Source: Bacillota bacterium (GTDB lineage Bacteria > Bacillota > SHA-98 > UBA4971). Taken from it: DNA of 64,000 nt. Every line of letters starts with the position of its first letter. Within the stretch, counting starts at the first letter, position 1. The notes beneath the pieces were generated by a model. The model did no database searches. It worked only from the letters and a program-made list of their open reading frames with translations, and had not been told where the DNA came from. A program made the position numbers and the translations under genes. The stretch spans positions 27,069 to 91,068 of the forward strand of contig JAAYXB010000039.1 of NCBI GenBank assembly GCA_012516125.1, given 5' to 3'. Positions 1,069 through 64,000 of this stretch are shown piece after piece.

Positions 1069-1267
1069 CTAAGTGAGGGTGCAGAAATGCTGCCGACTTT
1101 TGGGAGGGGTTGCCGGTGATTGCACGAGGGGTGTCAAAATCCGGCCACTGGCCAGACGGGCCGGATTTTGGCGAAGCGCGCCCCGCTTGGGGCGCCGTCC
1201 CCGAGTGCAACACCGGCAACCCGGCAACTACTGGAAGAGGGGCGAGAACTAACGCACCCTCACTTAG
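1069..1267 (+). repeat. Dispersed nested inverted repeat, long form, copy A
   Basis: CTAAGTGAGGGTGC...GCACCCTCACTTAG outer arms; GGGTTGCCGGTG...CACCGGCAACCC inner arms; CAAAATCCGGCC/GGCCGGATTTTG and GCGCCCCGCTTGGGGCGC hairpins. Confidence 0.95.
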
Positions 1268-11070: not shown

Positions 11071-12018
11071 ATGAAGAGAAGAGTTGCCCTGGTACAGGGC
11101 GGGAAATCCGCCGAGAGAGAGATATCGTTGCGCACCGGAGAGCAGGTGGGCGTTGCGCTGAGGCGCAAGGGCCACGAGGTGATCGCCCTCGACCTCGATG
11201 ACGGGCTCGTCCCGGCCCTCCAGAGAGAAAAGCCTGATGTGGTCTTCATCGCGCTTCACGGCAGGTACGGTGAGGACGGCTGCCTGCAGGGACTTCTCGA
11301 GATACTGGGCATCCCTTACGTCGGGTCTGGGGTCCTCGCCAGCGCGCTCGCCATGGACAAGATCATGTCCAAGAAACTCTTCCGGCTGGAAGGGCTTACC
11401 TGCCCTCGCAGCATTACCGTGATAAGAGATGGTCTTGACCGGATCGACGAGGGCAAACTTGTCCAGACGGTTGAAGAAGCCCTGGGGTTTCCGGCCATCG
11501 TGAAGCCCAACAGGGAGGGGTCCACGATCGGGCTTACCCTCGTAAGGGAGCCGGGCAGCCTTTGGGACGCCCTCGCCCGCGCCTTCGAGTACGATCCGGA
11601 GGCACTGGTGGAGGAGTACGTCGAGGGAACCGAAATCACCGTGGGCGTCCTTGGCAACCGTGAGCCGTGGGCCCTTCCGGTGATCGAGATCGTGTCCGCC
11701 ACCGGCCTCTATGACTATAAGGCTAAGTACACAAAGGGTATGAGCGAGCACATCATCCCCGCTCGCGTGGCGCAGGACACGTATAAGGCGGCGCAGGACG
11801 CCGCCGTGAGGGCCCACAAGGCCCTCGGCTGCCGGGGCATGTCCCGCGCGGACTTCATCGTCGGGCCGGGCGGCGTGCCGTACATCCTCGAGGTGAACAC
11901 CATCCCCGGAATGACCGAGACGAGCCTTCTTCCAGATGCCGCCAGGGCGGCGGGCATTGAATTCCCTGACCTTGTTGACATGCTCATCGACTTCGCCCTT
12001 GAGCCTGCCACTAAGTGA
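11071..12018 (+). CDS. ddl: D-alanine--D-alanine ligase
   Basis: QGGKSAEREISLRTG, ALHGRYGEDG, KPNREGSTIGLT, EVNTIPGMTETSLLP; stop codon lies in repeat copy C. Confidence 0.95.
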   Translation: MKRRVALVQGGKSAEREISLRTGEQVGVALRRKGHEVIALDLDDGLVPALQREKPDVVFIALHGRYGEDGCLQGLLEILGIPYVGSGVLASALAMDKIMSKKLFRLEGLTCPRSITVIRDGLDRIDEGKLVQTVEEALGFPAIVKPNREGSTIGLTLVREPGSLWDALARAFEYDPEALVEEYVEGTEITVGVLGNREPWALPVIEIVSATGLYDYKAKYTKGMSEHIIPARVAQDTYKAAQDAAVRAHKALGCRGMSRADFIVGPGGVPYILEVNTIPGMTETSLLPDAARAAGIEFPDLVDMLIDFALEPATK

Positions 12019-12135
12019 GAGTGCAGGAATGCCCCCGACCTTTGGGAGGGGTTGCCGGTGTTGCACTCTCTCTTTGAGTCACCGGCAACCCCCAGATGTT
12101 GGCAAGGTCGGACCAACTAACGAACCCTCACTTAG
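12011..12135 (+). repeat. Dispersed nested inverted repeat, short form, copy C (core inverted relative to copy H)
   Basis: ctaagtgagagtgc...GTTGCCGGTG-TTGCACTCTCTCTTTGAGT-CACCGGCAAC...ccctcacttag. Confidence 0.95.
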
Positions 12136-14103: not shown

Positions 14104-14302
14104 CTAAGTGGGGGTGCAAAAATGCTTCCGACTTTTGGGAGGGGTTGCCGGTGATTGCACGAGGGGTGTCAAAATCCGGCCACTGGCCTGACCGGCCGGA
14201 TTTTGGCGAAGCGCGCCCCGCTTGGGGCGCCGTCCCCGAGCGCAACACCGGCAACCCGGCAACTACTGGGAATTGGGCAAGGACCAACGCACCCTCACTT
14301 AG
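14104..14302 (+). repeat. Dispersed nested inverted repeat, long form, copy D
   Basis: Near-identical to copy A including both inner hairpins. Confidence 0.95.
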
Positions 14303-41918: not shown

Positions 41919-42115
41919 CTAAGTGGGGGTGCAGAAATGCTTCCGGCTTTTGGGAGGGGTTGCCGGTGATTGCACGAGGGGTGTCAAAATCCGGCCACTG
42001 GCCGGACGGGCCGGATTTTGTCAAGGCGCCCCGCTTGGGGCGCCGTCCCCGAGTGCAACACCGGCAACCCGACAACTACTGGAAACGGGGCAAGGACTAA
42101 CGCACCCCCACTTAG
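41919..42115 (+). repeat. Dispersed nested inverted repeat, long form, copy G
   Basis: ctaagtgggggtgc...gcacccccacttag; compensatory G/C changes in outer stem; both inner hairpins. Confidence 0.95.
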
Positions 42116-43538: not shown

Positions 43539-43697
43539 CGGACGGGAAACGGGAGCCCGCCTTCACCACTTCTGCTCTGTTCATGATGCAAGCGAAACGC
43601 CTCGTGACGAGCCCGGCGCGCCCGGTCGCGGGGGCGGCGCCGGGCGAGGTTTATCGCGAGTAGCCGTTAGGCATTGATTGTCAGCCACCGGGCATCG

Positions 43698-43824
43698 CTT
43701 AGTGGAGGTGCACAAAATGCTCCCGACTTTTGGGAGGGGTTGCCGGTGACTCAAAGAGAGAGTGCAACACCGGCAACCCGGCAGCTGCTGGAAGACGGGC
43801 GACGACCAATGCACCATTACTTAG
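43698..43824 (+). repeat. Dispersed nested inverted repeat, short form, copy H
   Basis: cttagtggaggtgc...GTTGCCGGTG-ACTCAAAGAGAGAGTGCAA-CACCGGCAAC...gcaccattacttag. Confidence 0.93.
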
Positions 43825-45790: not shown

Positions 45791-45984
45791 GAAGACCCTA
45801 CCGTGTGCGATGTGGTGCTGGTAACTTCTGTTCCAACACCATATGAAAGGGAGCCCGGGCTCCGGGTGCGGCGCGTATGCCGCGGTGGTGCGGACACGCA
45901 AAACATCTGGGAGGGCACCCACCTGCAGGGCGCAGGGATATGAGATGTTACCGGTAAGACGGCACGGTGGGGTCTTCTTTTTCG
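45791..45984 (+). ncRNA. ssrS: 6S RNA
   Basis: Closing stem GAAGACCC...ACCGTG / CACGGTG-GGGTCTTC, about 190 nt, internal bubble region, U-rich 3' flank; TATTAT about 30 nt upstream; lies between aspS and rarA, a known 6S neighbourhood in Bacillota. Confidence 0.82.
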
Positions 45985-56429: not shown

Positions 56430-57713
56430 GTGCTGTGGTCGGCGCGAGCTTTCAGGACAGAGACAGTGAAGGGCGCCGGGCGCTTTGGTGTGCAGACGGT
56501 AAGACGAACTGGTTCGGCGGGTTCGGTGCGGGGCGGCTTCGGCGCGAGGCCCGGGCGCGGGCTTGCCGCGATGATGGGCCCGCCCGCCCTTTTGATCTTT
56601 GCAACGCTTTATGCGCTTTGGCCTCGGGCCACGGTCGTGGTCTCGCCCGCGGTGTCGGGGGCGCGCCACAAGGTTGTGATAGAGGCGTCCACGGCGGCCG
56701 CAGGGGTTGACGTGGAAGGCGGCCTGGTGCCGGCGCGCGCGATGGAAGACGCTTTCACCGTGTCTGTCACGGTGCCAGTGTCGGGGTCGGTGCGCTCCGG
56801 GGCCACCAGGGCGCGGGGGGCTGTGGTTTTCATCAACGAAGGGTCGGAACCTGTCAGCGTGCCCAAGGGCACGGTGGTTGCCACGGCGGGGGGCGTGAGG
56901 TTTCGCACCCTGACAGGTGTTGTGGTTCCCGCGTCCACTGTGAAGCACTTCACGAACGTAGCAGTCGACGCAGACCCGGGGACGGCGAAGGTAGACGTGG
57001 AGGCTGAGGAACCCGGGACGAACGGGAACGTTGCCGCGGGCCGCATCACGGTTGTGGTGGGCGCGGCTCGTGGTGGCCTCAAGGCCGTGAACCCTGAACC
57101 ACTGACGGGCGGCGAGGACAAAATAACGCCTGCGGTCTCTCCGGTCGATCTCGTGACTGCCAGGAAGCGGCTCGCAGCCGAGGCGGCGAGGGTGGCCGCG
57201 CGGCGGCTTGCTGAGAAGTCACCGGCGAACCTTCGCGTGCTCGGAGAGACCATTGCCGTGCAACAGGAGGAGCCTGTTTTCAGCCAGGCTCCTCTTACTC
57301 CGTCGGCGGAACTGCGTGCGTCGTGCCAGGCGAGCGCAAGCGTGCTTGCAGTGAAAGAGGCGGATCTGCTGAAGGCCGCGAGGGGGCGGTTCTTGCTGGA
57401 ACTCGGGGCGGACGCTGCCCGGGTGGTCTCGCCTGAGGTCGAGGTCGAGATATGGAGGGCAAGGAGGATGGACGCTGAGACCGCGGCTGTTGAGATGGTT
57501 GCCAGCGCCCGGGTCGCAGCGTGCGTGGAGCCGGACGAGCTCGCGCGTGAGCTTGCCGGCAAGAGCGTGCAGGAGGCGAAGGCTCTGCTCGCTGCACGGC
57601 CCGGGGTGAGCGGGTTTTCGATATACCCCGATGAGGGCGATGAGCGCCGCCTGCCCCGGTTCCCCCGGTGGATCCGTGTAGTCGTGGGGCGCCCGGAGGG
57701 GAACCGCAGCTGA
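56430..57713 (+). CDS. Membrane-anchored protein with baseplate J/gp47-like domain
   Basis: GAVVFINEGSEPVSVPKGTVVATAGGVRFRTLTGVVVPASTVKHFTNVAVDADPGTAKVDVEAEEPGTNGNVAAGRI. Confidence 0.6.
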   Translation: MLWSARAFRTETVKGAGRFGVQTVRRTGSAGSVRGGFGARPGRGLAAMMGPPALLIFATLYALWPRATVVVSPAVSGARHKVVIEASTAAAGVDVEGGLVPARAMEDAFTVSVTVPVSGSVRSGATRARGAVVFINEGSEPVSVPKGTVVATAGGVRFRTLTGVVVPASTVKHFTNVAVDADPGTAKVDVEAEEPGTNGNVAAGRITVVVGAARGGLKAVNPEPLTGGEDKITPAVSPVDLVTARKRLAAEAARVAARRLAEKSPANLRVLGETIAVQQEEPVFSQAPLTPSAELRASCQASASVLAVKEADLLKAARGRFLLELGADAARVVSPEVEVEIWRARRMDAETAAVEMVASARVAACVEPDELARELAGKSVQEAKALLAARPGVSGFSIYPDEGDERRLPRFPRWIRVVVGRPEGNRS

Positions 57714-57791
57714 GCGCGGGTGCACAGAGGGCGGTAAGGCGGAGCATCCCGTGTGGGGGCAGAGTCTTGCAGCGATTCTGCAAGAGGTACA

Positions 57792-57906
57792 GGGCTGCCG
57801 GTGCTTGCACGACAGGGCGTCGGAATTCGGTCACTTGCTTGCGTGCCGAATTCCGTCGAGGCGCTCCGCTTGGGGGGCCGTCCGCGGAGTGCAACAGCGG
57901 CAACCC
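57792..57906 (+). repeat. Diverged long-form core, copy I (outer arms not detectable)
   Basis: gctgccggtgcttgcacgacagggcgtCGGAATTCGG...CCGAATTCCGtcgaggcgctccgcttggggggccgtccgcggagtgcaacagcggcaaccc. Confidence 0.8.
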
Positions 57907-57956
57907 GCCGAGAAGTGGCAGTGATTCCTAAGCTTGCGCCAGGTGACGTAAAGGGC

Positions 57957-59538: not shown

Positions 59539-60000
59539 TTGACCCGGCGACCCAAGATGGATACACTCGGATGTGAAAGAGAGGTGGCCCAAGTGCCAGA
59601 GATTGACGACGTTGTGACCCTTGTGTACGAGGACGGCGAGGAAGAGACCTTTTCCGTGGAAGATGTTATGGAGCTTGACGGCAACACCTACGTTATCCTG
59701 GTGCCGGAGGATGCGGACAGCGAGGCGGAGGACGACGAGGAGGTTGAGGCGTGCATCTTCCGGGTCGAGACCGACGAGGACGGCGAGGAGGTCCTGGTTG
59801 ACCTGGACGACGACGAGTATGAGAAGGTAACCAGCGCGATTTGCGCGGACCTCGATGAGGTCTGCGACGAGGACGAGGACGAGGACGAGGAAGAGGAAGA
59901 GGACGAGGACGAGGACGAGGACGAGGAAGACCTCGATCTCGACGAAGATGAGGACGACCCATTCGACTCCGAGGATGACGAGGACGAAGACAAAGACTAG
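59539..60000 (+). CDS. DUF1292 domain protein with long Asp/Glu tail; start uncertain
   Basis: DDVVTLVYEDGEEETFSVEDVMELDGNTYVILVPED; tail DEDEDEDEEEEEDEDEDEDEEDLDLDEDEDDPFDSEDDEDEDKD. Confidence 0.85.
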   Translation: MTRRPKMDTLGCEREVAQVPEIDDVVTLVYEDGEEETFSVEDVMELDGNTYVILVPEDADSEAEDDEEVEACIFRVETDEDGEEVLVDLDDDEYEKVTSAICADLDEVCDEDEDEDEEEEEDEDEDEDEEDLDLDEDEDDPFDSEDDEDEDKD

Positions 60001-61257: not shown

Positions 61258-61352
61258 ATCCCCCAGTTTGCCACCACCTGGCGGGTTGTCGGTGGTTGAA
61301 CGAGGGGAGCCAAAATCCGGCTACTTGGCCGACGAACCGGATTTTGGCGACC
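61257..61352. repeat. Partial long-form repeat, copy K
   Basis: ggttgtcggtggttgaacgaggggagCCAAAATCCGGctacttggccgacgaaCCGGATTTTGGcg; left flank resembles a reversed right arm (cf. copy E). Confidence 0.8.
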
Positions 61353-61472
61353 GGTGACGTGCGTCACCGTTCCCGGCCGATTCGTTCCCTCCGTCACGCG
61401 TTCTTCATGAAGAGTTCCCCACGTCATGCATTTGTGCCTGATCCGTGACAAGCATCATCACTGCCGCCCTAT

Positions 61473-63775: not shown

Positions 63776-63862
63776 GAGGCTGGCGCTCCGCTCCCGGGTA
63801 TGGATATGGTGGTTATGGGGGATGTGCCGGCAGGCGCCGGGCTCAGCTCGTCCGCGGCGCTA
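63776..63862 (+). pseudogene. Galactokinase fragment ending at repeat copy J
   Basis: EAGAPLPGMDMVVMGDVPAGAGLSSSAAL, the GHMP-kinase motif, then repeat sequence. Confidence 0.7.
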
Positions 63863-64000
63863 AGTGAGGGTGCATTAGTCCTCGCCCCTCTTCCAGTAGT
63901 TGCCGGGTTGCCGGTGTTGCACTCGGGGACGGCGCCCCAAGCGGGGCGCGCTTCGCCAAAATCCGGCCCGTCCGGCTAGGCAGCCGGATTTTGACACCCC
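63860..64000 (-). repeat. Dispersed nested inverted repeat, long form, copy J (reverse orientation, truncated by window end)
   Basis: ctaagtgagggtgcattagtcctcgcccctcttccagtagttgccgggttgccggtgttgcactcggggacggcgccccaagcggggcgcg... reverse complement of copy A. Confidence 0.95.

What the first reader, a model, noticed from the sequence alone, without database searches (positions are those of the whole stretch)
57792..57906. Copy I conserves hairpin structure with different sequence (covariation)
The long-form stem CAAAATCCGG/CCGGATTTTG is replaced in copy I by CGGAATTCGG/CCGAATTCCG at the equivalent position, between the same flanks (GCACGA... and ...CTCCGCTTGGGG...GAGTGCAAC). Copy G also has paired changes in the outer stem (GTGGGGGTGC with GCACCCCCAC versus GTGAGGGTGC with GCACCCTCAC). 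Paired changes suggest selection, or a replication mechanism, acting on base pairing in DNA or RNA.
Basis: partly seen in the sequence, partly recalled or inferred. Interest (0 to 1): 0.65.

Follow-up and report, generated by a model that had tools for sequence, protein, structure and literature searches.

The report
Paired mutations in hairpin transposon copy
The hairpin with "matched" mutations is an old, decaying copy of a small jumping DNA element (an IS630-type MITE) present in at least 150 places in this Bacillota genome; the matched changes are real across the family, but they look more like the two hairpin arms copying each other in DNA than like selection on an RNA.

Summary
The sequence observation is correct. 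Copy I (57792-57907) has stem CGGAATTCGG/CCGAATTCCG where other long copies have CAAAATCCGG/CCGGATTTTG; three of ten pairs changed on both sides and none on one side. The "copy G" outer-stem example is real sequence but not covariation: across 55 full elements the two sides do not associate (p=0.43). Copy I is a diverged member of an interspersed family (at least 150 covariance-model hits in this genome, also in sister species and another family of the class). An orthologous empty site shows insertion at CTAG with TA duplication, and IS630 transposase elements in the same class share the ends, so this is an IS630-type MITE with a foldable three-way-junction core. Paired changes exceed expectation family-wide in P1, P3 and P4, but no single pair is significant under a strict tree-based null. 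G.T equals A.C among one-sided changes: no sign of RNA-strand selection. Against its ortholog in a sister species copy I has 13 one-sided and no compensatory changes: it is decaying. Core inversions between arms, homogenised arms and clustered double changes point to inverted-repeat template switching/recombination in DNA as the likeliest source of pairing. New member of a known kind.

The parts
57792..57907 (+). Copy I core: P1 stem, tandem GA/GA internal loop, P2, three-way junction with hairpins P3 and P4
   Evidence: CM R1 hit 113.1 bits, E 7e-22; BLASTN to copies at 1107, 14142, 41957
57821..57830 (+). P3 5' arm CGGAATTCGG
   Evidence: sequence, inverted repeat
57846..57855 (+). P3 3' arm CCGAATTCCG
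   Evidence: sequence, inverted repeat
57860..57879 (+). P4 hairpin GGCGCTCC-GCTT-GGGGGGCC, with one mismatch and one wobble relative to copy E
57711..57942 (+). Inferred full extent of the degenerate element: left end CTGAGCGCGGGTGC, right end GTGATTCCTAAGCTTGCGCCAG (compare consensus CTAAGTGCGGGTTC ... GTGATTTCTGAACTCGCACTTAG); starts at the stop codon of the upstream gene. Ends inferred by eye
   Evidence: orthologous locus has the copy in G004 (L235) and lacks it in G001, G002, G003, G005
1069..1267 (+). Full long-form element (199 nt), CTAAGTG...CACTTAG
14104..14302 (+). Full long-form element
41919..42115 (+).
63860..64000 (-). Long-form element cut by the window edge
43694..43824 (+). 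Short-form element (same ends and P1 stem, no P2/P3/P4 core)
12011..12135 (+). Short-form element

Best explanation
Copy I is an old, decaying member of an IS630 (Tc1/mariner-type) MITE family. Intact elements are about 125 nt (short) or 199 nt (long), sit in CTAG targets as C-TA-[AGT...ACT]-TA-G, and carry between the ends a palindromic core (P1 stem, P2, hairpins P3 and P4 around a three-way junction). Shown: family membership, abundance, TA duplication at one clean empty site, matching ends on IS630 transposase elements in the same class, more Watson-Crick double changes than expected. Inferred: the arms of the stems stay complementary mainly because replication template switching or recombination between inverted-repeat arms rewrites one arm from the other (and sometimes flips the core), so a new stem sequence such as that of copy I arises in paired steps and is then copied by transposition as a subfamily. 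After insertion the individual copy drifts; nothing indicates that copy I is used as an RNA. My confidence in the MITE identity alone is about 0.9, in the arm-copying mechanism about 0.55.
For: Paired change: 12/1.2, 11/1.5 and 5/0.9 observed/expected double changes in P1a, P3, P4. DNA-level arm rewriting: core inverted relative to both outer arms in 9 distinct elements against 77 normal, 2 with both arms of one type; four clustered double changes in one stem of one copy (L140:2572-2686) and adjacent doubles in L133; no G.T over A.C preference, 91:89; one-sided changes dominate between orthologs, and for copy I 13 one-sided, 0 compensatory of 41 pairs. Published mechanism: PMC8794818 and the abstract of PMC8604942 (arm homogenisation and spacer inversion).
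Against: The tandem GA/GA internal loop is kept in 73 of 93 cores, and the three-way-junction architecture persists in two families of the class, which arm copying alone does not explain. The 9 inverted cores may descend from as few as two inversion events. No intact cognate transposase was found in the own genome, and the right end of the G014 element was not seen.
Confidence: 0.7

Rival explanations
1. The core is a functional RNA (or strand-specific ssDNA) structure under selection in the propagating elements, so stems change by compensatory mutation.
For: Excess of Watson-Crick double changes in P1, P3, P4; GA/GA loop kept in 73 of 93 cores; 3 cores with tandem GA in P4 (CGAC/GGAG), which copying one arm from the other cannot make.
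Against: G.T and A.C equally frequent on internal (24:18) and terminal (67:71) branches; no significant single pair; orientation to neighbouring genes near random (own 28:13 upstream p=0.03, G004 16:14, others 21:14); orthologous copies drift; no Rfam match near threshold.
Confidence: 0.2
2. The copy-to-copy difference is only subfamily replacement: different MITE subfamilies inserted independently, so copy I was never converted from the common stem and no compensatory event happened at this locus.
For: Copy I's closest relative is another dispersed copy, L002, 86-87%; at the same CTAG site sister species can hold different subfamilies or orientations (L010/L262, L050/L166, L008/L182); CTAG is rare (25 in the window) and about a dozen elements occupy such sites.
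Against: Compatible with the main explanation at this locus, but does not explain how the subfamilies' paired differences arose.
Confidence: 0.5
3. REP/REPIN-like hairpin element moved by a Y1 (HUH) transposase without target duplication.
For: Abundant, palindromic, intergenic; compensatory changes also reported for REPINs (PMC3116915).
Against: TA duplication at CTAG, inverted terminal repeats and IS630 elements with matching ends.
Confidence: 0.03
4. The paired differences are chance.
For: No single pair passes the strict test; the TIR example is chance.
Against: Helix-level excess of double changes, 0 of 2000 shuffles in P1a, P3 and (Watson-Crick doubles) P4.
Confidence: 0.03

Closest known systems
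IS630/Tc1-mariner insertion sequences (IS630, ISY100)
   Same: TA target duplication; CTAG preference as reported for IS630 (Tenzen and Ohtsubo 1991, title cited in PMC2170065); DDE_3 transposase elements in the same class with CTAAGT...ACTTAG ends
   Different: The window's elements carry no transposase; only relicts were found in the own genome
RUP of Streptococcus pneumoniae (IS630-Spn1-type MITE)
   Same: Short non-autonomous element, IS630-like ends, tightly folded with paired TIRs, about 110 copies (PMC3049150)
   Different: RUP is 107 bp and AT-rich; this family is 125-199 nt, GC-rich, with a three-way-junction core
Correia (NEMIS/CREE) elements of Neisseria
   Same: High-copy MITE; inversion of elements reported (title cited in PMC10969869)
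   Different: Unrelated sequence; Correia transcripts are cut by RNase III at the TIRs (PMC10969869), which is not known here
REPINs
   Same: Dispersed hairpins with common compensatory changes (PMC3116915)
   Different: RAYT-associated, different insertion signature

Membership tests
IS630/Tc1-mariner-type MITE | TA target-site duplication | tested here: met
   One clean filled/empty pair, L051:2088-2285 against L215; 68 of 105 near-full copies retain CTA...TAG
IS630/Tc1-mariner-type MITE | Terminal inverted repeats | tested here: met
   AGTGRGGGTGC/GCACCCYCACT in the main subfamily; weaker in others (little beyond AGT in some)
IS630/Tc1-mariner-type MITE | Ends shared with an autonomous IS630 element | tested here: met
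   G015 element bounded CTAAGT...ACTTAG, G014 and G016 left ends alike, shared GCCACTTTnCCAGG; the likeness is to divergent subfamilies and confined to the ends
IS630/Tc1-mariner-type MITE | No coding capacity, <500 nt, many copies | tested here: met
   125-199 nt; at least 150 core hits
IS630/Tc1-mariner-type MITE | Mobilised in trans by the cognate transposase | not testable with these tools
   Only relicts in the own genome
Structured non-coding RNA family | Significant covariation beyond phylogeny, pair by pair | tested here: not met
   No pair E<0.05 over all pairs; helix-level excess only
Structured non-coding RNA family | G.U tolerated over A.C on the transcribed strand | tested here: not met
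   91 G.T against 89 A.C
Structured non-coding RNA family | Expressed transcript | not testable with these tools
   no expression data
REPIN/RAYT | Insertion without target duplication | tested here: not met
   TA duplication
REPIN/RAYT | Associated RAYT (Y1) gene | not tested
   RAYT genes were not searched

The most novel reading that the evidence does not exclude
The three-way-junction core, kept with its GA/GA loop in two families of the class while the outer ends diverge, is a folding unit that the element itself needs (as extruded DNA or as RNA), for instance for mobilisation or for protecting host transcripts, and the paired changes reflect selection on it.
Probability: 0.2. Interest if true: 0.6.

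Novelty: new member of a known kind. Interest (0 to 1): 0.4.

Why it matters
It is a worked example in which textbook 'compensatory' changes in a repeated hairpin need not mean a functional RNA: the same family shows inverted cores, homogenised arms and clustered paired changes, as predicted by template switching between inverted-repeat arms. Interspersed MITE families with hundreds of copies and sister-species orthologs make that mechanism testable, and they warn against reading covariation in repeats as RNA selection. The CTAG occupancy also suggests target-site saturation.

Tried and rejected
Known RNA family: no Rfam match at gathering threshold and only weak chance-level hits. Phage, plasmid or viral spread: none for the long form or a core pattern. 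IS630 locus in the own genome as the current source: only a broken fragment, which does not carry the MITE ends. RNA orientation bias relative to genes: not convincing. Structure-naive RNAalifold on the gappy MAFFT alignment gave almost nothing, so the structure was taken from copy E and checked pair by pair. Outer-stem example of copy G: rejected as covariation.

Full report
OBSERVATION. Copy I is homologous to the long repeats over 57792-57907 (E=1e-22, 80%) and folds far better than shuffles (z=-5.1). Against copy E (41957-42071), stem P3 of copy I has four Watson-Crick-preserving double changes (three in the quoted 10-bp stem) and two one-sided changes near the loop; elsewhere copy I has lost pairs (two in P1, two in P2, one in P4). 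The second example, the outer stem of 'copy G', is true as sequence, but over 55 distinct full elements the 5' A/G and 3' T/C do not associate (p=0.43).

WHAT IT IS. The window is G000:C22:27069-91068 of a 3.24 Mb Bacillota genome. Full elements are mostly 197-200 nt with a short form of about 125 nt that lacks the inner core.

MOBILITY. Copy L051:2088-2285 has an empty orthologous site in G004 with 97% identical flanks; the junctions read C-TA-[AGTG...CACT]-TA-G in place of C-TA-G. Of 105 distinct near-full copies, 68 still read CTA and TAG at the two ends. IS630-family transposase elements in the class begin CTAAGT and share the subterminal GCCACTTTnCCAGG with divergent MITE left ends; the G015 element is bounded CTAAGT...ACTTAG. 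The own genome holds only relicts of that transposase. ISY100, studied in vitro, inserts almost only at TA with TA duplication (PMC2170065), and the CTAG preference of IS630 is stated in the title of Tenzen and Ohtsubo 1991 cited there. I therefore file the family as an IS630-type MITE.

COPY I ITSELF. Its locus carries the element in G000 and G004 (90% identity over the region) and lacks it in G001, G002, G003 and G005, where the intergenic space is shorter (26 bp in G001). The ends are degenerate; I place them near 57711 and 57942 by eye. Copy I against its ortholog: 13 of 41 scored pairs differ on one side, none on both; element identity 0.81, flank identity 0.83. So this copy evolves like its neutral surroundings.

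IS THE COVARIATION REAL? Tested on 93 distinct cores aligned by MAFFT without structure. (a) A G-test with APC and a null simulated on the FastTree tree with column rates kept (own script, 60 simulations, not R-scape): no pair reaches E<0.05 over about 6200 column pairs; the best structural pair, 36-57, has E=2.3, which is about 0.017 if only the 45 proposed pairs are tested (the second figure is my arithmetic). (b) Event counting on the same data: Watson-Crick double changes on one branch are 12 against 1.2 expected (P1a), 11 against 1.5 (P3), 5 against 0.9 (P4), 5 against 1.0 (P1b, p=0.03), with P2 not significant; a tree from unpaired columns gives the same for P1a, P3 and P4. So pairing is retained above chance at helix level. 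Recombination among copies could inflate the event counts, because a hairpin swapped as a unit counts again.

SELECTION OR DNA MECHANISM? One-sided changes from Watson-Crick pairs go to G.T and A.C equally (24:18 internal, 67:71 terminal), which does not fit a transcribed, selected RNA. Orthologous copies mostly show one-sided changes. Nine distinct elements have the core inverted relative to both outer arms against 77 normal, and two have both arms of one type. Double changes are clustered in some single copies: four in P1a of L140:2572-2686, two adjacent ones in P4 of L133. Arm homogenisation and spacer inversion are the published outcomes of template switching between inverted repeats (PMC8794818; abstract of PMC8604942). 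Against a purely mutational account: the GA/GA loop is kept in 73 of 93 cores and three cores have tandem G.A in P4, which arm copying cannot produce.

SITE SATURATION. CTAG occurs 25 times in the window where base composition predicts 215, while about a dozen elements sit in such sites. This makes independent hits on the same site likely and can explain three orthologous sites at which G004 holds a different subfamily or the opposite orientation (L010/L262, L050/L166, L008/L182).

VERDICT.

Noticed in passing
45792-45977: 6S RNA gene, the only Rfam gathering-level hit in the window (91.9 bits).
   Followed up: no
whole window: CTAG is strongly depleted (25 against 215 expected from composition, 59 from a second-order estimate); roughly a third of the CTAG-derived sites carry an element.
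   Followed up: partly
L106:1456-1643, L092, L147, L119 and others: Core inverted between the outer arms in 9 distinct elements; L117 and L163 have two arms of the same type.
   Followed up: partly
L050/L166, L010/L262, L008/L182: The same insertion site holds different MITE subfamilies or opposite orientations in sister species.
   Followed up: partly
L249:1031-1130 (-): Hairpin CCCTGCTA...TAGCAGGG directly before the Shine-Dalgarno and start codon of the IS630 transposase gene; it may shield the gene from read-through transcription.
   Followed up: no
59710-59994: Run of GAG/GAC repeats (would encode an acidic low-complexity stretch).
   Followed up: no
many contig ends of G000: Many contigs end inside copies of this repeat, so copy number is probably underestimated because of assembly breaks.
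   Followed up: no
61283-61401: Chimeric copy: the P3 half matches the long form (84% over 68 nt), but the 3' half is unrelated.
   Followed up: no
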